A DNA stretch of 64,000 nucleotides, taken from positions 62,001 to 126,000 of the forward strand of contig NZ_SJKA01000008.1 of the NCBI RefSeq assembly GCF_004331435.1. Reading direction: 5' to 3'. The position numbers and the translations under genes were made by a program. The notes beneath the pieces were generated by a model, which ran no database searches, was not told where the DNA came from, and worked only from the letters and a program-made list of their open reading frames with translations. Positions 25,602 through 34,570 of this stretch are shown here, piece by piece. Within the stretch, counting starts at the first letter, position 1. Each line of letters opens with the position of its first letter. This stretch comes from Kribbella sindirgiensis (lineage in GTDB: Bacteria > Actinomycetota > Actinomycetes > Propionibacteriales > Kribbellaceae).

Positions 25602-26663
25602 TTAGGAGGTGTGGGCGATCTGCTCCTGGATCCGGAACTCGAGACCGTCGGCGACCGCCAGGTACACGTCCTGGTCGACGAGGTTGCCGTCGAGACGGAG
25701 CAGGCCGCGGGGGCTGTCGTAGAAGTGGCCGCTCGGGAGTCCGGCCGACATCGCGATGGTGCCGCTGACCTCGCCGAGGCGGGCGAGGAAGCGGATCGCC
25801 TCGTAACAGGACTCGCCGACCGCGTTGAGCGCGGGCGCGAACGCCCCGAAGCGGGCGTAGTACCGCTGGGCGAACTCGTTGCTCTCGACGGTGGTGAGCT
25901 TGTCGAAGTACGCCGCCGCCGCGTAGACGCCGTGGTTCGCGCCCGATCCGGCGCCGAGCAGCGTATTCTCCTCGATCGCCGGGCTGAGACGGAGCAGTCT
26001 CTCGCTCAGCCCACCGGCCGCGAACTGCCGGTTGAAGTGCACCGCGTCCTGGCCCATCAGGAGCATGATCACGCCGTCGGCGTCAGTGGCCCGAAGTCCA
26101 TCGATCACGTCCCGGAAGTCCGCCGTACCGAGCGGGACGTACGCCGAGTGCACGATCTCGGATCCCGTTCCCTGCAAGGCTTCCTGCGCAACCGAACCGG
26201 TGACCCGGGGATACACGTAGTCGTTGCCGACGACAACCCAGCGCCGGGCGCCGAGATGCTCGCGCAGCCAGTGCGCCGCCGGCAGCAGCTGGTTGACCGG
26301 GCGCTCGCCGAGCATGAACACACCAGGCGTGTCGTCACCGCCCTCGTGCATCGCCGCGAACGCGTACACCACCCGCCCGCCGATGCGTCGGGTCAGCGCG
26401 ACCCGGACCGCGGAGATGTGCCAGCCGGCGACCGCTTCCACGCGACCCGTGTCGACGAGCCGCCCGACCTCCTCGGCGACGACCTCCGGTGGGCGGCCGG
26501 CGTCCACCTGGACGAGCTCGACCTGACGGCCCGCGATACCGTTCCGCGCGTTCAGTTGCTCGACCGCGAGTTGCCCGCAGGCCAGACACGACGGCCCGTA
26601 GATCCCGGTCGGCCCCTGCAACGGCACGACGAAGGCGATCGGCAGTACGTCAGTACGCCGCAT
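25602..26663 (-). CDS. AmiC/UrtA-like binding protein without signal peptide
   Basis: A 353-residue periplasmic-binding-fold protein of the amide/urea type (IAFVVPLQGPTGIYGPSCLA at the start, VVVGNDYVYPRVTGSVAQEA, and PALNAVGESCYEAIRFLARL near the end). The ATG at 26663 has an excellent GGAGGAGGTG site, and the mature fold begins six residues later, so there is no signal peptide or lipobox. It is therefore cytosolic, like AmiC, which senses amides and controls an antiterminator in Pseudomonas. No AmiR-type ANTAR gene is nearby; instead a MarR regulator starts 101 bases away on the other strand, followed by a permease and urease. A role as intracellular sensor of urea or an amide is inference. 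Confidence 0.85.
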   Translation of the reverse strand: MRRTDVLPIAFVVPLQGPTGIYGPSCLACGQLAVEQLNARNGIAGRQVELVQVDAGRPPEVVAEEVGRLVDTGRVEAVAGWHISAVRVALTRRIGGRVVYAFAAMHEGGDDTPGVFMLGERPVNQLLPAAHWLREHLGARRWVVVGNDYVYPRVTGSVAQEALQGTGSEIVHSAYVPLGTADFRDVIDGLRATDADGVIMLLMGQDAVHFNRQFAAGGLSERLLRLSPAIEENTLLGAGSGANHGVYAAAAYFDKLTTVESNEFAQRYYARFGAFAPALNAVGESCYEAIRFLARLGEVSGTIAMSAGLPSGHFYDSPRGLLRLDGNLVDQDVYLAVADGLEFRIQEQIAHTS

Positions 26664-26764
26664 CGTCACCTCCTCCAGTCGCGGCCAAGTCTGACCGACG
26701 ATGCGGCGGAACCGCGAGCCACCGGTTATATTTCCCAGCACCTGAACCGAGGAGGAGGTGCGGC

Positions 26765-27148
26765 ATGCTGCTGTTGCTGAAGCGGATGGAGCGGCAGTTC
26801 GAGCTGGGCCTGCAGCCGCTGCTCGGCGAGTTCGGGCTGACGATCGAGCAGTGGCGGATCATGGCCGCACTCCGCGAGGAGCCCGGACAGCCGATGACCG
26901 TCCTCGCACAGTCTGCCGTCCTGCCGGCCGCCAGCCTCACCCGGCACGTCGACAAGCTGGTCGAACGCGGCCTGGTTCTGCGCCGCATCCATACCAGTGA
27001 CAAGCGACGGGTCATCATCGCGCTCTCCCCCGTCGGCGCCACGGTCGCCGAGCGTCTCGCCGCGGCCCAGCGCGGTCTCGAGGAAATGATTTCAAAGTAC
27101 TTCCAGATGGAAATACACGAACGTAGCAGCTCGGCAACACAGCGGTAA
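26765..27148 (+). CDS. MarR family transcriptional regulator
   Basis: A 127-residue MarR regulator, a little short for the family. The winged helix is visible in TIEQWRIMAALREEPGQPMT, then VLAQSAVLPAASLTRHVDKL, with the wing LRRIHTSDKRRVIIALSPVG. The C-terminal dimer helix ends MEIHERSSS. The ATG at 26765 has a very strong GAGGAGGAGGTG site. It is divergent from the AmiC-like gene and 103 bases upstream of the permease in the same direction, so it probably controls the urea locus and itself from the shared 101-base intergenic region (TATATT at about 26728 is a -10 candidate). Confidence 0.9.
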   Translation: MLLLLKRMERQFELGLQPLLGEFGLTIEQWRIMAALREEPGQPMTVLAQSAVLPAASLTRHVDKLVERGLVLRRIHTSDKRRVIIALSPVGATVAERLAAAQRGLEEMISKYFQMEIHERSSSATQR

Positions 27149-27251
27149 CACGGCGTTCCTAGGTTCCTTCCATTCGGGTGCATCCCCCGCCGGCAGCGTC
27201 GCCGGCCCGCCGGAGCACCGCTCGCCCGAAGGTGCCGCCAGGAGTTCGCCC

Positions 27252-28892
27252 ATGTCTGTGGAACCCTCGCTCGACCACCGCACCACCGCAGAAGCCCCCG
27301 CGCCCACCACCGCGACCCGCGAGACACTCGAGGACTACACCCTCAGGTTCGCGCCGCGCAGCTACCGGAAATGGTCGACCGGCGTCGTCGCCGTCTCGGC
27401 CCTCGGCGGGATCGCGTACCTCGCTGACTTCGCGATCGGCGCGAACATCGGGATCTCGTACGGGACCACGAACGCGCTGTGGGGAATCGCGATCTTCGCC
27501 GTGGTGATCTTCGCGACCGGCCTGCCGCTCGCGTACTACGCCGCGCGCTACAACATCGACCTCGACCTGATCACCCGCGGCAGCGGCTTCGGGTACTACG
27601 GCTCGGTCGTCACCAATGTGATCTTCGCGTCCTTCACGTTCATTTTCTTCGCGCTCGAAGGCTCGATCATGGCGCAGGGCCTGCAACTGGGCCTGCACGT
27701 GCCGCTGTGGCTCGGGTACGCCGTCTCGACGCTGGTGATCTTCCCGCTGGTCATCTACGGGATGAAGGTGCTCTCCACGCTCCAGGTGTGGACGACTCCG
27801 CTGTGGCTGATCCTCATGGTGCTGCCGTTCGGCTACCTGCTCGTGTCGCACCCGTCGTCGGTGTCGACGTTTTTCGACTACGGTCCGGACGCCGACTTCG
27901 GTTCGATGCTGCTCGCGGCCGGCGTGTGCCTGTCGCTGATCGCGCAGATCGCGGAGCAGATCGACTACCTGCGGTTCATGCCGCCGAAGACCCCGGAGAA
28001 CTCGCGCCGGTGGTGGACCGCGATGCTGCTCGCCGGTCCGGGCTGGGTGATCTTCGGCGCGCTGAAGCAGGTGATCGGCCTGTTCCTCGCCGTGTACCTG
28101 ATCGCGAACGTCGCCGACTCGTCGTCGATCGCGAACCAGCCGGTACACCAGTTCCTGGAGATCTACCGCGGGTTCCTGCCCGGGTGGCTCGCGATGACGC
28201 TGGCCGTCGTACTGGTCGTCATCAGCCAGGTGAAGATCAACGTGACGAACGCGTACTCCGGTTCGCTGGCCTGGACGAACTCGTACACGCGGCTGACCCG
28301 GCACTACCCCGGACGGCTGGTGTTCCTCGGGTTCAACCTGGTGATCGCGCTGGTGCTGATGGAGGCGAACATGTTCGACTTCCTGAACACCATTCTCGGG
28401 TTCTACGCGAACTGCGGGATGGCGTGGATCGTGGTCGTTGCCTCGGACATCGTGTTCAACAAGTACCTGCTGGGGCTGTCCCCGAAGGCTCCCGAGTTCC
28501 GGCGCGGCATGCTGTACGCCGTCAACCCGGTCGGCTTCGTGTCGATGGCGGCGGCCGCGGGTGTCTCGATCGTCGTGTTCTTCGGTGGATTCGGCGCCGG
28601 CATCAAGCCGTACTCGCCACTCGTCGCGATCGGGCTCGCCCTGGTCCTCCCGCCGGTGCTGGCCGCGATCACCCGCGGCAAGTACTACCTGCGGCGGACC
28701 GACGACGGACTCGATTTGCCGATGTACGACGAGCACGGGAACCCGTCGGGCGAAGTACTGACGTGTCACGTGTGCCGCCAGCAGTACGAGCGCCCCGACA
28801 TGACTGCCTGCGCGACGCACTCCGCGGCCGTGTGCTCGCTCTGCCTGAGCACAGACAAGGTGTCCGACCACGTCCTTCCCGCACAACGATGA
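27252..28892 (+). CDS. NCS1 (cytosine/purine/allantoin-type) permease with C-terminal Cys-rich tail
   Basis: A 546-residue transporter of the nucleobase:cation symporter-1 family with about twelve hydrophobic segments in residues 40-475. Family features are FAPRSYRKWSTGVVAVSALG leading into helix 1, and INVTNAYSGSLAWTNSYTRL in the helix 8 region. After the last helix comes a soluble tail with Cys505, Cys508, Cys520, His523, Cys528 and Cys531 (CHVC, CATH, CSLC). This spacing resembles a treble-clef or B-box-like zinc site and is not part of the normal family. GGAG lies seven bases before the ATG. The location between MarR and urease suggests import of urea or of a compound broken down to urea; NCS1 substrates are usually nucleobases, hydantoins or allantoin. 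Confidence 0.9.
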   Translation: MSVEPSLDHRTTAEAPAPTTATRETLEDYTLRFAPRSYRKWSTGVVAVSALGGIAYLADFAIGANIGISYGTTNALWGIAIFAVVIFATGLPLAYYAARYNIDLDLITRGSGFGYYGSVVTNVIFASFTFIFFALEGSIMAQGLQLGLHVPLWLGYAVSTLVIFPLVIYGMKVLSTLQVWTTPLWLILMVLPFGYLLVSHPSSVSTFFDYGPDADFGSMLLAAGVCLSLIAQIAEQIDYLRFMPPKTPENSRRWWTAMLLAGPGWVIFGALKQVIGLFLAVYLIANVADSSSIANQPVHQFLEIYRGFLPGWLAMTLAVVLVVISQVKINVTNAYSGSLAWTNSYTRLTRHYPGRLVFLGFNLVIALVLMEANMFDFLNTILGFYANCGMAWIVVVASDIVFNKYLLGLSPKAPEFRRGMLYAVNPVGFVSMAAAAGVSIVVFFGGFGAGIKPYSPLVAIGLALVLPPVLAAITRGKYYLRRTDDGLDLPMYDEHGNPSGEVLTCHVCRQQYERPDMTACATHSAAVCSLCLSTDKVSDHVLPAQR

Positions 28893-28923
28893 GCCGCCCC
28901 GCGCCGGAGCTGCAATGATGCGG

Positions 28924-28967
28924 TTGGGGAGGATTACCTACCCAAAACGGACAGCAATCCTCCCCAA
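28924..28967 (+). promoter_or_regulatory. Perfect 12-bp hairpin between permease and urease
   Basis: TTGGGGAGGATT at 28924-28935 and AATCCTCCCCAA at 28956-28967 form a perfect 12-base inverted repeat with a 20-base loop. It starts 32 bases after the permease stop and ends about 104 bases before ureA. No run of T follows, so it is not a classic intrinsic terminator. It may be a processing or attenuation hairpin that separates permease and urease expression, or a protein-binding dyad. Confidence 0.6.
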
Positions 28968-29071
28968 TCCCGGCCCGTCCGGCTGCGCTCGCTCGCAGTC
29001 TCCGACCTCCGAAGGGAGTCAGCGGCGGTCACGTCTCGCCTTGAACAACGGGCCGGCCCCGCACCACTCAC

Positions 29072-29374
29072 ATGAACTTCACTCCCGCTGACGTCGAGAA
29101 GCTGCTGCTCTCCGTGGCCGGCATGGTCGCCCGCGACCGGCTGGCCCGGGGAGTGCTTCTCAACCACCCCGAAGCCGTCGCCCTGCTCAGCACCTGGGTG
29201 ATCGAACGCGCCCGCGAAGGCGCTCTCGTGGCGGACCTGATGGAGACCGGTCGCACGGTGCTCACCCGCGATCAGGTGATGCCCGGAGTGGCCGAGCTCC
29301 TCCACGACGTCCAGGTCGAAGCCACCTTCCCGGACGGCCGCAAACTCGTGACTATCCACAGCCCGATCATTTGA
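29072..29374 (+). CDS. ureA: Urease subunit gamma
   Basis: A 100-residue subunit of the normal length, part of the (UreABC)3 urease that hydrolyses urea to ammonia and carbamate. It begins [20 protein letters not shown] and shows [40 protein letters not shown] and the end [18 protein letters not shown], all standard gamma-subunit segments. The ATG at 29072 has no strong ribosome binding site. It is the first gene of ureABCFGD. The start of ureB follows after 11 bases, or overlaps if a TTG at 29371 is used. Confidence 0.96.
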
Positions 29375-29385
29375 AGGCAGGATCC

Positions 29386-29734
29386 ATGGCCGACGACGAT
29401 AGACTTAGCAAGGAAAGACAGGGCGGGGCGGGGCCTGGAGCAGTCCGGGTGCTCCCTGGGAGCATCCGATTGAATGCCGACCGCTCAGACGACGAGCGTC
29501 TGCGGCTGGTGATCGTGAACGCCGGCGACCGGCCGATCCAGATCGGCTCGCACCTGCACCTGCCGGACGCCAACTCGGCCCTCGCCTTCGACCGGGATGC
29601 CGCCCAGGGGTTCCGCCTGGACATCCCGTCGGGTACGTCGCAACGGTTCGAGCCCGGCGCTTCGCGCGAGGTGGCGCTGGTCGCGCTGCGAGGCAACCGC
29701 CGCGTGCCGGGCATCCAGTTGAAGGCGACTGATC

Positions 29735-29742
<8 letters not shown>
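29386..29742 (+). CDS. ureB: Urease subunit beta
   Basis: A 118-residue beta subunit. The conserved core is [40 protein letters not shown] and [20 protein letters not shown], ending [10 protein letters not shown]. The first 18 residues ([18 protein letters not shown]) are a charged extension ahead of the usual start. The ATG at 29386 has AAGGCAGG eight bases upstream and is preferred to a TTG at 29371 that would overlap ureA. The stop lies inside the ureC start region (8-base overlap). Confidence 0.95.
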
Positions 29743-31437
<1,695 letters not shown>

Positions 31438-31438
<1 letters not shown>

Positions 31439-32160
31439 TGGGTAACGCGGAGCTGGTCGCGATGATGCTCGCCGACGGCCGGCTGCCGACCGGCGGGCAC
31501 ACCCAGTCCGGTGGCTTGGAGCCCGCGGTCCGCGCGGGCCTGGGTGCCGACGGCAGGCAACTCGCCGACGTCGCGGCCTATGTCCGCGATCGCCTCCGTA
31601 CGACGACCCGCGTGGAAGCCGCTGTCGCTGTCCTCACTCGCCACATGGCGCTGGCACTTTCCGGAACAAAAGTTGCACCAGGCGACAAAAATGTTCCGGA
31701 AAGCCCCGAGCCCGTGGCGTTGGTCGAGGCGGCGTGGGCGGCGCGGGTGCCGAGCCACGTGGTGCGGGGCGTCTCGCGGCGGCAGGGGCGGCTGTTGTTG
31801 CGCCTGGCGCGGCGAGTATGGCCCGGCGTATCGACGTACCTGCCGAACGACGGCGAGATCGCGAGACCCGTCGTACTCGGAGTCGTCGGGGCGGTGACCG
31901 GGCTGTCGGCTGAGCAGGTGGCGCGGACCGTCGCGTACGACGACGCGCAGACCGTCATCTCCGCGTCCCTGAAGCTGCTGCCCGTGGACCCAGCCGACGC
32001 GGCGACCTGGCTAGCCGGCCTGCACGACGACATCGAACGGCTCGTCAAGGACGTCGCGCCGCTGACCCGCGTCGACGAGATCCCGGCCGACGGTGCGCCG
32101 CTGATCGACGTGTTCGCGCACCACCACGCCATCGAGAGAATGAGGTTGTTCCATGCCTGA
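31438..32160 (+). CDS. ureF: Urease accessory protein UreF with an in-frame palindromic insertion
   Basis: A 240-residue accessory protein that with UreG and UreD loads nickel into urease. Typical segments are [20 protein letters not shown]-like residues near the start, [20 protein letters not shown], and [20 protein letters not shown]. Residues 74-89 ([14 protein letters not shown]) are encoded by the 47-base palindrome at 31657-31703, whose codons are AT-rich and unlike the rest of the gene. The reading frame is kept, and the insertion falls in a loop where UreF proteins vary. The ATG at 31438 overlaps the ureC stop (TGATG). Confidence 0.93.
31657..31703. repeat. Palindromic element inside ureF
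   Basis: CTTTCCGGAACA at 31657-31668 and TGTTCCGGAAAG at 31692-31703 form a perfect 12-base inverted repeat around 23 bases. Within the loop GTTGC and GCGAC can pair further (one G-T wobble). The element is 47 bases, is open in the ureF frame, and uses codons such as ACA, AAA, GTT, GCA and AAT that are rare around it. It looks like a mobile or repeated palindrome inserted in coding sequence. I saw no second copy in this window. Confidence 0.75.
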
Positions 32161-32869
32161 CACGCCTGAGACCCGCTCGTTCCGCCTGGGAGTCGCAGGA
32201 CCGGTCGGCACCGGCAAGAGCTCGCTGATCGCGACCGTCTGCCGCGAGCTCGCCACCGAACTCCGGCTCGGTGTCATCACCAACGACATCTACACCGACG
32301 AGGACGCGCGGCTGCTGCGCTCGGCCGGCGTCCTCGACCCGGAACGCATCCGCGCGGTCGAGACCGGGGCCTGCCCGCACACCGCGATCCGCGACGACGT
32401 CACCCCGAACCTGATCGCGGTCGAAGACCTCGAACGCGACTTCGCGCCGCTCGACGTCGTCCTGGTCGAGTCCGGCGGCGACAACCTGACAGCGACGTTC
32501 TCCCCCGCCCTCGTCGACGCGCAGATCTTCGTCCTCGACGTGGCCGGCGGCGGTGACGTGGCCCGCAAGGGCGGTCCCGGTATCGCCCGCGCCGACCTCC
32601 TGATCGTGAACAAGACCGACCTCGCGCCGTACGTCGGGGTCGACGTCGAGCAGATGGTGAAGGACGCCGAGACGGCCCGCGACGGGAAACCCGTGATCGC
32701 GCTCTCGCGCACGGATCCCGCCTCGATCGCACTCCTGACCGCATGGGTGCGATCGATGGCGCACGTCGTACGCACCGGCGACCACACACCCGTCGATCCC
32801 GGTCCCATGGCCCCGCACTCGCACATCGGCGAGAACGGCGAGGTCATCACCCATGTCCACACGCATTGA
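32153..32869 (+). CDS. ureG: Urease accessory GTPase UreG
   Basis: A 238-residue SIMIBI GTPase that powers nickel delivery. The P-loop is [17 protein letters not shown]. The metal-binding CPH motif is [13 protein letters not shown], the switch segment is [18 protein letters not shown] and the guanine motif is [12 protein letters not shown]. The C-terminus adds His-rich residues ([17 protein letters not shown]) absent from many UreG proteins, which may store nickel in place of the missing UreE. The ATG at 32153 overlaps ureF by eight bases, and the end overlaps ureD by 17 bases. Confidence 0.97.
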
Positions 32870-33539
32870 GGTCGTCGCCGACCCGGTCCGGGACCGCTGC
32901 CTGCTGACGACCGACCACCTGTCACCGCGGCAACTGCCCGGTGCCGCCGGCGTCGTACGCGTCGCCCTCGTCGCAGCCGGTGCGCTGCTCCTTGCCGGTG
33001 ACGACGTACGCATCGAGATCGCGGTGTCCGGCGCCGTCCGGCTGGAGATCGTGGAGACCGCCGGAACCGTTGCCTACGGCATGCGTGGCGGTTCCGCGCG
33101 CTGGGACATCGACATCCGGCTGACGGACGGCGCCAGCCTCCAGTGGTACGCCGAACCGTTCGTCGTCGCCGCCGACGCCGACGTCACCCGTACGACGACC
33201 GTACGCCTCGCGGCCGGCTGCACCGCGCACCTTCGCGAGTCACTCGTCCTGGGACGGCAGGGCGAAACCGGCGGCGTCCTGCGTACCGCGACCCGTGCCT
33301 GGCTCGGCGAGGATCTCCTCCTCGCCGAGGACCTCGACCTCTCCCCCGACACTCGCACCGGCTGGGCGGTCCTGGGTACGAACCGTTGCCTCGACACCGT
33401 GACCACGCTCGGCTTCCGGCTACCCGACGACCCACAGACTCTGCAGCTCGAAGGCCCGGGCTCGATCGCTCGCCGACTGGTCCACGAACAGCATCAGAGC
33501 ACCCTGAACCACCCAGCCTCCGCGAGCTACGCCCGGTAA
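32853..33539 (+). CDS. ureD: Urease accessory protein UreD
   Basis: A 228-residue accessory scaffold that receives nickel from UreG/UreF and passes it to the alpha subunit. Segments [40 protein letters not shown] and [18 protein letters not shown] match the UreD/UreH family. It is short compared with the common 270-280 residues, as in the actinobacterial compact type. The ATG at 32853 lies inside ureG. It is the last gene; its stop overlaps the end of the convergent protease gene by 13 bases. Confidence 0.93.
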
Positions 33540-34444
33540 GCGCTCCACATGTTGCTCATCCGGGTGCTCTGGTCGAGGGTGAACTGGTTGTAGCAGGAGT
33601 CGTACGAGTAATCCATGTAGTTGTGGATCGGGTCCAGGCCCGGCAGCGAGCACGAGTCGCGTCCGGTCGGGCAGCCGTTGGTCGGGCTGCTCTGCGCGGG
33701 CGTATCGGCGACCTCGTCGTTCGTCGCCGTACAACCGCCCTGGAACGTGTGGTACAGCCCGAGCCAGTGGCCCGCTTCGTGCGTCGCGGTCTCACCGAGG
33801 TCGTAGTTCGTCGCCGAGCCACCGGGCAGCGACGTGTACTGCACGCGGATCCCGTCGATGCCGGGCTGCCGCGCGTAGTCCCAGGGGAACGTCGCGATCC
33901 CGAGGTACGCGAAGTCGACCAGCCAGATGTTCAGCGCGTTCTTGCCGCCCTGACGGGTCTTCTTCCGGTACGTGCTGCTCTGCTTGTCCTTGTGCCACTG
34001 GTTGTTGTCGTACTTGTCGACACCGGCCAGCGTGAACGTGAAGCCGGTGTTCGCGGCCTGCGACGACTCCTGGCCGCCGAACGTCTTGTTCAGTACGGCG
34101 ATCTGCTGCGAGATCTGGGTGTCGGTGACGTCACCGTTGCCGGCGGCGTCCCGCATCACGTGCACGTAAACGGGCACGTTCACCGACGCGGCGGCACGGG
34201 CGGTCTTTGCCTTGAGCAACCGCGCCGTCCGGGCCTCGATCGCCTTCTGCTCGGAGACCGAGATGTCGCGGGTGTCGGCGCCGTGACCGCCCTTCGCGGA
34301 CGCGCCGGCAGGCGGTACGAAGCAGTCCGGCGCCTCGCCGACCGGCGTTCGCGCGGTCGCCTGACCGCTCAGTGGAGTCAGGACCAGAGCCGCACCGGAA
34401 ACCAGGACCGCCAGGGCACGGGAACGGGGGATGAGAGATCGCAC
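33527..34444 (-). CDS. Secreted zinc metalloprotease, M43 (pappalysin-like)
   Basis: A 305-residue secreted protease. A signal peptide occupies about residues 1-32 (basic start, then ALAVLVSGAALVLTPLSGQA). The catalytic domain has the metzincin motif HEAGHWLGLYH, with three zinc His and the active-site Glu. It is followed by Cys-containing segments (GGCTATNDEVADTPAQSSP, NGCPTGRDSC) and the Met-turn region NYMDYSYDSC, typical of M43B. The GTG at 34444 was chosen because GGAGGA precedes it and a signal sequence starts there. It is divergent from the PadR gene and converges on ureD with a short overlap. Confidence 0.9.
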   Translation of the reverse strand: MRSLIPRSRALAVLVSGAALVLTPLSGQATARTPVGEAPDCFVPPAGASAKGGHGADTRDISVSEQKAIEARTARLLKAKTARAAASVNVPVYVHVMRDAAGNGDVTDTQISQQIAVLNKTFGGQESSQAANTGFTFTLAGVDKYDNNQWHKDKQSSTYRKKTRQGGKNALNIWLVDFAYLGIATFPWDYARQPGIDGIRVQYTSLPGGSATNYDLGETATHEAGHWLGLYHTFQGGCTATNDEVADTPAQSSPTNGCPTGRDSCSLPGLDPIHNYMDYSYDSCYNQFTLDQSTRMSNMWSAYRA

Positions 34445-34570
34445 AGCTGCGCTCCTCCAGGTCGGGCCGCTGGGCGGGCGGCCGGTTGCCCCGAATACTG
34501 CCCAGCACTTACCTGACACGGAAGCGGTCGCTCCCCAAAATCAGGGGAATCCTTCGCCATGACTCAATGA

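What the first reader, a model, noticed from the sequence alone, without database searches (positions are those of the whole stretch)
25602..33539. A sense-import-hydrolyse urea locus with unusual parts
A signal-less AmiC/UrtA-like binding protein, a divergent MarR, an NCS1 permease with an extra Cys/His tail and a compact ureABCFGD operon lie together in 8 kb. The combination is unlike known urt or yut urea systems: the binding protein is cytosolic, there is no ABC transporter and no AmiR. I suggest the binding protein senses urea, or an amide that yields it, and works with MarR.
Basis: partly seen in the sequence, partly recalled or inferred. Interest (0 to 1): 0.66.

Follow-up and report, generated by a model that had tools for sequence, protein, structure and literature searches.

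The report
Amide-sensor-type switch controlling a urease operon
In Kribbella soil bacteria and some relatives, a binding protein without an export signal sits with a DNA-binding MarR protein beside the urea-degrading genes, and a short DNA palindrome shared with related gene clusters suggests that the pair switches these genes on and off.

Summary
The gene set is real: signal-less AmiC/UrtA-like binding protein (SBP), divergent MarR, NCS1-fold permease with Cys/His tail, ureABCFGD. Where the SBP occurs it is a conserved unit: SBP-MarR-permease-ureABC is collinear in 26 of 26 same-genus loci fetched; 11 same-genus genomes lack the SBP. In Nocardioidaceae the pair sits, in two other layouts, beside urt-ure clusters. 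The wider family pairs SBP-MarR with nitrile hydratase, amidase or formamidase.

New here: palindrome TTCCA-NN-TGGAA in the permease leader (27 of 27), upstream of urtA (12 of 15 with <=1 mismatch) and of nitrile hydratase (7 of 14), against 2 of 170 other upstream regions; the 16-base form matches at <=1 mismatch only here in 8.9 Mb. In the one genome that kept permease-urease but lost SBP and MarR, the first site is gone and the second mutated. Most likely the pair is a local inducer-responsive repressor system for urea uptake and hydrolysis.

Not shown: ligand (only 3 of 8 key UrtA urea residues are kept), sign of control, SBP-MarR contact, urea transport. AmiC+MarR pairs are recalled as known for nitrile hydratase; the urease-linked branch is a variant.

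The parts
25602..26663 (-). cytosolic AmiC/UrtA-like binding protein (SBP), proposed ligand sensor, 353 aa
   Evidence: Pfam Peripla_BP_6 4.9e-65; TIGR03407 UrtA 146 bits, cut-off 492.75; Foldseek best 8tg1, UrtA 8hic/7s6e/7s6f, then AmiC 1qnl/1qo0/1pea; SD and ATG at 26663
26664..26764 (.). divergent SBP-MarR promoter region; conserved GCTATATT (possible -10, inference); the TTCCA-NN-TGGAA motif is not generally found here
   Evidence: alignment of 27; in 29 named urease loci the best match has 3-4 mismatches in 26
26765..27148 (+). MarR-family regulator, 127 aa
   Evidence: PF01047 3.8e-13; SD AGGAGGAGGT
27100..27115 (.). proposed operator O1, CTTCCAGATGGAAATA (palindrome; overlaps the MarR 3' end in this clade)
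   Evidence: 27 of 27 leaders, window included; matches of the 16-mer with <=1 mismatch lie only here in the genome
27134..27149 (+). GlnR-like box GCAAC-n6-GTAAC (nitrogen control inferred)
   Evidence: alignment A2; GlnR consensus from passages of PMC10704036
27160..27165 (+). putative -10 TAGGTT of the permease-urease promoter (inference)
   Evidence: invariant in A2; similar blocks in Nocardioides urtA promoters
27167..27177 (.). proposed operator O2, CTTCCATTCGG, just downstream of the -10
   Evidence: A2 (one base differs in L056); same two-site layout at urtA in L090; mutated where SBP and MarR are lost
27252..28892 (+). NCS1-fold permease (PERM), proposed urea importer
   Evidence: Foldseek Mhp1 2jln, CodB 7qoa; next to urease in 4 of 9 loci outside the genus that were examined
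28764..28844 (+). Cys/His tail of PERM, residues 505-531 (likely metal site, inference)
   Evidence: alignment A3
29072..29374 (+). ureA
   Evidence: PF00547 1.6e-42
29371..29742 (+). ureB
   Evidence: PF00699 4.4e-35
29735..31438 (+). ureC
   Evidence: NF009685 1038 bits, above cut-off
31438..32160 (+). ureF
   Evidence: PF01730 2.2e-18
32153..32869 (+). ureG
   Evidence: TIGR00101 237.9 bits, above cut-off
32853..33539 (+). ureD
   Evidence: PF01774 3.4e-19

Best explanation
The locus is a self-contained urea-use unit. The NCS1-fold permease imports urea and urease splits it. The cytosolic SBP reads the level of a small ligand (urea or a close amide) inside the cell and passes it to the MarR protein. 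MarR binds O1 and O2, two TTCCA-type sites on either side of the permease-urease promoter, and most likely represses it; ligand-loaded SBP most likely relieves this. A GlnR-like box between the sites probably adds general nitrogen control. Shown by comparison: conservation of the unit, the palindrome at three kinds of target promoter (permease-urease, urt-urease, nitrile hydratase), its near-uniqueness in the genome, joint loss of SBP, MarR and O1 in one genome. Inferred: that MarR is what binds the palindrome, SBP-MarR contact, sign of control, ligand, urea transport, GlnR.
For: Gene order conserved in 26 of 26 SBP-bearing same-genus loci fetched. Pair beside urease in three layouts: before PERM-ure, before urt-ure, and convergent after ureD. 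In the tree the 37 urease-linked SBPs are one side of a branch (89/94, in 90% of bootstrap trees), the 14 NHase-linked ones another (99/97). Palindrome taken from the Kribbella leader, then counted elsewhere: <=1 mismatch upstream of urtA in 12 of 15 and of nthB in 7 of 14; controls 0.5% of shuffles, 2 of 170 other genes' upstream regions, 1 of 82 formamidase-linked regions. Own genome: 0-1 mismatch matches of the 16-mer only here. G057: SBP, MarR and O1 absent, GlnR-like box kept, O2 and -10 changed. Window-type UreC in 25 of 26 SBP+ same-genus genomes (the 26th ends at a contig edge) and 1 of 11 SBP- (54). PERM adjoins urease without SBP/MarR in L191 and L195-L197. Two palindrome copies (1 mismatch each) upstream of the amidase beside an SBP-MarR pair on Rhodococcus plasmid pNit.
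Against: No experiment links these proteins, the DNA or urea. Of UrtA's four hydrogen-bonding residues two are kept (Ser, Tyr) and two changed (Gln144 to M105, Asn246 to M203); Trp120, also essential there, is H82. 3 of 14 nthB promoters have no site with <=2 mismatches. Of five plasmid loci examined, only pNit has a <=1-mismatch site in the 300 bases before the target gene; M8 has one elsewhere in its MarR-nthB gap, RHA1, C. glutamicum and Agrobacterium none. The MarR recognition segment does not follow the operator strictly: pNit and M8 MarRs carry Lys where urease- and NHase-linked ones carry Arg (74, 87). PERM stands away from urease in 5 of 9 loci outside the genus and beside formamidase in L066. 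Ten of the 11 SBP- same-genus genomes lack the window-type ureC, and some genomes carry another, distant urease.
Confidence: 0.72

Rival explanations
1. The pair controls this operon, but the ligand is an amide or other nitrogen compound rather than urea; urease merely finishes that pathway.
For: Relatives sit with amide-forming or amide-using enzymes; two hydrogen-bonding urea contacts of UrtA are Met here; SBP resembles AmiC as well as UrtA.
Against: The urease-linked SBPs form one group with pocket residues (M105, M203, A229) different from NHase- and formamidase-linked SBPs, which fits a ligand special to urease; none of the ten genes scanned here with Pfam is an amidase, nitrile hydratase or formamidase.
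Confidence: 0.3
2. SBP is not a regulator but a ligand-delivery or activity partner of the permease or of urease in the cytosol.
For: SBPs normally serve transporters; SBP and PERM are close neighbours here and in L066.
Against: No PERM was found near the SBP-MarR pair in the 18 urt-type named urease loci or in L059-L065, and a separate urtA was found in 15 of those 18; a MarR-type ORF lies within 1.5 kb in 78 of 80 named loci; SBP and MarR are both absent while PERM and urease stay in G057.
Confidence: 0.08
3. The conserved permease leader is a structured RNA (riboswitch) that controls the operon; MarR has other targets.
For: The leader is strongly conserved over about 150 bases, including the part next to the start codon.
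Against: No Rfam match there at E<=5; 85 nt of the window's leader, the part after the putative -10, fold no better than shuffles, z 0.16 (the upstream part was not folded); the conserved blocks match a palindrome found at other operons' promoters.
Confidence: 0.05
4. Neighbourhood is inherited synteny without function: the pair regulates something unlinked.
For: All same-genus loci share one layout, so they are not independent.
Against: Pair-urease linkage exists in three layouts; palindrome at target promoters 19 of 29 against 2 of 170 other upstream regions.
Confidence: 0.05

Closest known systems
AmiC-AmiR of Pseudomonas aeruginosa
   Same: amide receptor of this fold that on ligand binding releases a gene-control partner (passages of PMC5259723); Foldseek matches 1qnl, 1qo0, 1pea
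   Different: partner here is a DNA-binding MarR, not the antitermination protein AmiR; target is a permease-urease operon
NhhC/NhhD and NhlC/NhlD of Rhodococcus rhodochrous J1 nitrile hydratases (recalled; papers not held)
   Same: AmiC-like plus MarR-like regulators of an amide/nitrile operon; a homologous pair lies beside nthBA on Rhodococcus sp. M8 p1 (83) and beside aliphatic amidase on pNit
   Different: urease-linked SBPs form their own branch with other pocket residues; the enzyme is urease; J1 sequences were not compared
AmiC/AmiA of the Mycobacterium smegmatis acetamidase operon (recalled; only a reference-list entry titled 'amiA is a negative regulator...' was seen)
   Same: recalled as a binding-protein-like regulator and a negative regulator of an amide enzyme
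   Different: not compared by sequence here
UrtA of the UrtABCDE urea transporter
   Same: fold and 3 of 8 key urea-pocket residues (Ser122, Glu146, Tyr190 equivalents)
   Different: no signal peptide, no UrtA-type neighbour genes here, 146 bits against a cut-off of 492.75 (13), Gln144 and Asn246 not kept
NCS1 transporters Mhp1 and CodB
   Same: predicted fold; other LeuT-fold transporters, DUR3 among them, match less well
   Different: no Pfam match; Cys/His tail; urease-linked

Membership tests
UrtA (ABC urea transporter binding protein) | score above the family cut-off | tested here: not met
   146 of 492.75 bits
UrtA (ABC urea transporter binding protein) | export signal and partner urtBCDE | tested here: not met
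   no signal by sequence; no UrtA over cut-off elsewhere in G000; urtBCDE themselves were not searched genome-wide
UrtA (ABC urea transporter binding protein) | eight conserved urea-pocket residues | tested here: not met
   kept: S84, E107, Y149; changed: H82, F102, M105, M203, A229 (alignment; residues from passages of PMC10392092)
AmiC-type cytosolic amide receptor | fold and lack of signal | tested here: met
AmiC-type cytosolic amide receptor | binds a small amide | not testable with these tools
   needs a binding assay
AmiC-type cytosolic amide receptor | AmiR partner | tested here: not met
   the neighbour is a MarR; AmiR was not searched elsewhere in the genome
AmiC-like + MarR amide/nitrile regulator pair | adjacent SBP and MarR | tested here: met
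AmiC-like + MarR amide/nitrile regulator pair | operator shared with nitrile hydratase promoters | tested here: met
   nthB promoters: 7 of 14 with <=1 mismatch, 11 of 14 with <=2; binding itself untested
AmiC-like + MarR amide/nitrile regulator pair | regulation by the pair in vivo | not testable with these tools
   experiment needed
NCS1 transporter | fold | tested here: met
   Foldseek Mhp1/CodB best, TMt 0.65-0.75, TMq 0.55-0.61, model pLDDT 75
NCS1 transporter | sequence family match (Pfam) | tested here: not met
   no match at E<=0.01, only tail matches at E<=10
Urease operon | ureABC plus accessory F, G, D | tested here: met

The most novel reading that the evidence does not exclude
One mobile control cassette, a cytosolic AmiC-type sensor plus MarR reading a common operator (TTCCA-NN-TGGAA), has been fitted to nitrile hydratase, some amidase and urease operons of actinobacteria, with the ligand retuned at three pocket positions (105, 203, 229: M/M/A urease-linked, L/V/H nitrile-hydratase-linked, L/(I,V)/L formamidase-linked); and the Kribbella permease belongs to a family of NCS1-fold urea transporters, not matched by Pfam, with a metal-binding-type tail, that replaced UrtABCDE under the same promoter design.
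Probability: 0.32. Interest if true: 0.75.

Novelty: new variant of a known kind. Interest (0 to 1): 0.58.

Why it matters
It would give urease a dedicated, inducer-reading switch in soil actinobacteria, tie it through one operator to the regulators of nitrile hydratase operons, and name a candidate urea permease of the NCS1 fold. The operator and the three pocket positions make both the wiring and the ligand directly testable, and could serve as a ready-made urea or amide biosensor.

Tried and rejected
Riboswitch in the permease leader: suggested by its conservation, not supported (no Rfam match; fold z 0.16 for 85 nt). Rfam 5_ureB_sRNA match at 29894-30177 minus: lies antisense to ureC, taken as coding similarity (not followed up). 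Autoregulation through the same palindrome in the SBP-MarR gap: not supported. A strict link between MarR recognition segment and operator: I first read it so (Arg in the urease- and NHase-linked rows, Lys in 30 of 31 formamidase-linked rows), but pNit and M8 MarRs carry Lys and have palindrome sites, so it is a trend at most. First UrtA query was read in a wrong frame and redone. The count of 30 promoters held one wrong row (L085, where the 'urtA' hit was the SBP itself); it was dropped, giving 29; the shuffles were run with it in. Urease loci with no urtA in the DNA held, hence not tested: L059-L065, L079, L085, L088. Paper searches listed nothing, judged by title and start of abstract, on a urease-linked AmiC/MarR pair or a urease-linked NCS1 urea permease; only the first rows of long lists were seen, from one open library without most subscription papers.
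Full report
WHAT IS THERE. The window lies in an 8.9-Mb actinobacterial genome; its closest named SBP relatives are Kribbella. From left to right: SBP (25602-26663, minus), MarR (26765-27148, plus), permease PERM (27252-28892, plus), ureA, B, C, F, G, D (29072-33539, plus). The SBP start was moved to the ATG at 26663 and the MarR start set at 26765, both behind strong SD sequences. The SBP has the periplasmic-binding-protein fold but starts straight with its first strand; among 36 relatives from the order the start codons with the best SD leave at most about 16 residues before it, though several have no clear SD. PERM gives no Pfam match at E<=0.01 and no solved relative by sequence, yet its model (pLDDT 75) matches the NCS1 structures Mhp1 and CodB best.

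THE UNIT IS CONSERVED. SBP was found at E<=1e-40 in 37 of 147 genomes of the order, the own genome included; 26 of 37 other same-genus genomes have it. I fetched the 36 loci outside the own genome. In 26 of 26 same-genus loci the order is SBP, MarR, PERM, ureABC; ureF-G-D follow in 25, the 26th contig ending in ureC (L049). One locus (L053) has 3.9 kb between MarR and PERM; the leader stayed with PERM. In 7 of the 8 loci of a second family (L059-L065) the pair lies convergent after ureD, with no PERM, and ABC ATPase genes lie just before ureA in the five of these inspected. The eighth, L066, has fmdA-fmdB-PERM-SBP-MarR. L067 has the pair alone; L068 has SBP without a detected MarR. From PERM to ureA it is at most about 20 bases in 18 of 27, so they are probably one operon; in the window the gap is 179 bases, with no terminator-like site.

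THE FAMILY. A scan of named genomes kept the best 80 of at least 566 relatives. By neighbours within the held DNA they fall into urease 29, formamidase 31 (two of them, L110 and L140, by fmdB only), nitrile hydratase 14, other 6 (Pfam check of the marker genes). A MarR-type ORF lies within 1.5 kb of the SBP in 78 of 80. Of the 29 urease loci, 11 have PERM (ten Kribbella and L077, labelled Streptomyces sp. SID13031 but grouping with Kribbella in the tree) and 16 have urtD/E-like genes; L079 and L088 show neither in the DNA held. In five of the urt loci (L090-L094) the pair precedes urtA, the side it has in Kribbella. In the tree of 91 SBPs the 37 urease-linked rows are one side of a branch (89/94, unstarred) and the 14 nitrile-hydratase rows another (99/97, starred); Kribbella groups with L090-L094 (93/89, unstarred). 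A search of plasmids matched 98 records; I looked at five. The SBP-MarR pair lies beside aliphatic amidase (pNit; RHA1 pRHL2), nthBA (Rhodococcus sp. M8 p1), amidase-AmiS (C. glutamicum pCGR2) and ABC genes (Agrobacterium pAt).

A SHARED OPERATOR. The PERM leader holds the O1 palindrome in 27 of 27 sequences, the window's included (alignment); G057, below, lacks it. With the pattern TTCCA-NN-TGGAA fixed from Kribbella I scanned 81 stretches in all, the window, 10 loci of the order and 70 named loci, saw it near urtA and nthB, and then counted it in the 250 bases upstream of those genes. With <=1 mismatch it is present in 12 of 15 urtA and 7 of 14 nthB promoters, together 19 of 29; with <=2 mismatches in 26 of 29 (the first count had one wrong row). 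Controls: random windows 1.35% and 4.5%; shuffles 0.5% and 7.9%; other genes' upstream regions 2 of 170 and 13 of 170 (many of these lie inside operons, so they are a soft control); formamidase-linked regions 1 of 82 and 4 of 82. Three of 14 nthB promoters have none even at <=2 mismatches. Rows are related, so the test p (2e-17) overstates independence. On the five plasmid loci, pNit has two copies (1 mismatch each) before the amidase; in the 300 bases before the target gene M8, RHA1 and Agrobacterium have none with <=2 mismatches and C. glutamicum one with 2; M8 has a 1-mismatch site elsewhere in its MarR-nthB gap. In the own genome the 12-base form occurs exactly at two places, here and on another contig in what looks by eye like coding sequence. 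The 16-base form with <=1 mismatch occurs only here; at <=2 mismatches it gives 16 and 15 matches on the two strands against 11 and 10 for the reversed control. The regulator thus looks local.

PROMOTER DESIGN. The leader reads O1, GCAAC-n6-GTAAC, TTCCTAGGTT, CTTCCATTCGG (O2). L090 has the same two-site design before urtA, and L091-L094 a close one with a weaker second site (by eye). The GNNAC repeats fit published GlnR boxes (gTnAc-n6-GaAAc; t/gTAAC-n6-Gc/aAAC; GAAAC-n6-GTATC: passages of PMC10704036); that GlnR binds here is inference. O2 directly follows the putative -10, a position suited to repression (inference). MarR recognition segments show a trend: urease- and nitrile-hydratase-linked rows carry LTR, 30 of 31 formamidase-linked rows carry Lys in place of that Arg, and those loci mostly lack the palindrome; but pNit and M8 MarRs carry Lys and have palindrome sites.

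A NATURAL LOSS. Window-type UreC (>=84% identity) is present in 25 of 26 SBP-positive same-genus genomes (in G060 in two pieces; the 26th is the contig edge) and in 1 of 11 SBP-negative ones, G057. In G057's 20-kb stretch, SBP, MarR and O1 are missing; PERM and ureABCFGD remain; the GlnR-like box remains; O2 reads TTTCATT instead of TTCCATT and the -10 TAAGTT instead of TAGGTT. One case only, but it fits decay of operators after loss of their protein.

LIGAND. The nearest solved structures are urea-binding 8tg1 and UrtA, then AmiC. PMC10392092 (abstract and passages seen) names Trp120, Ser122, Tyr141, Gln144, Glu146, Tyr190, Asn246, Ser274 as key in UrtA, and Phe192 as near but dispensable. 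By the HMMER alignment the eight are H82, S84, F102, M105, E107, Y149, M203, A229 here: three identical. Of 29 positions that separate the urease-linked SBPs (37 rows) from both other groups (14 and 32 rows), three (105, 203, 229) fall on the nine pocket positions (hypergeometric p 0.03, a weak figure because the cut-offs were mine). So the pocket is of the small-amide kind and seems retuned by context; urea is the likeliest ligand from context, not from the pocket.

PERM. Relatives at E<=1e-40 were found in 10 of 296 genomes of the phylum, own included. Of nine other loci examined, four have PERM next to urease without SBP/MarR (L191; L195-L197, which are three loci of one family) and five do not within the stretch held. 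No UrtA over cut-off and no AmiS/UreI were found elsewhere in the own genome; other urea-transporter families were not searched. PERM is the best candidate for urea entry there (inference). The Cys/His tail is kept in 16 of 17 aligned rows.

KNOWN OR NEW. Works like: AmiC-AmiR (ligand binding to AmiC releases AmiR; passages of PMC5259723), with MarR in AmiR's place. Recalled, not read: Rhodococcus NhhC/NhhD and NhlC/NhlD and the mycobacterial acetamidase regulators. The urease branch, the palindrome across urease and nitrile hydratase promoters, and the NCS1-fold urease-linked permease did not show in the titles and abstract starts listed.

Noticed in passing
window 29894-30177, minus: Rfam 5_ureB_sRNA match (41.2 bits, gathering 40) antisense to ureC; most likely coding-sequence similarity, not an sRNA.
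   Followed up: no
window 28764-28844: Metal-binding-type tail of the permease (CHVC...CATH...CSLC) kept in homologues at about 50% identity, though degraded in L191; role unknown.
   Followed up: partly
L066:2636-7432: Permease relative in an fmdA-fmdB-PERM-SBP-MarR cluster, hinting at formamide or wider amide transport.
   Followed up: partly
window 26680-26765: Conserved AGTGTG-like and GCTATATT blocks in the SBP-MarR gap of Kribbella; control of the regulators themselves is unexplained.
   Followed up: partly
G072, G013, G049, G105, and G031, G051: Six same-genus genomes carry a urease ureC only 45-57% identical to the window's, four of them besides the window type.
   Followed up: no
L202:5636-5787: Two palindrome copies upstream of the aliphatic amidase on R. 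rhodochrous plasmid pNit, a two-site layout at an amidase.
   Followed up: partly
window 33527-34519, minus: ORF that by eye reads like a secreted zinc metalloprotease (HEAGHWLGLYH), converging on ureD; matched in only 2 of 26 same-genus loci within the DNA held (L033, L035).
   Followed up: no
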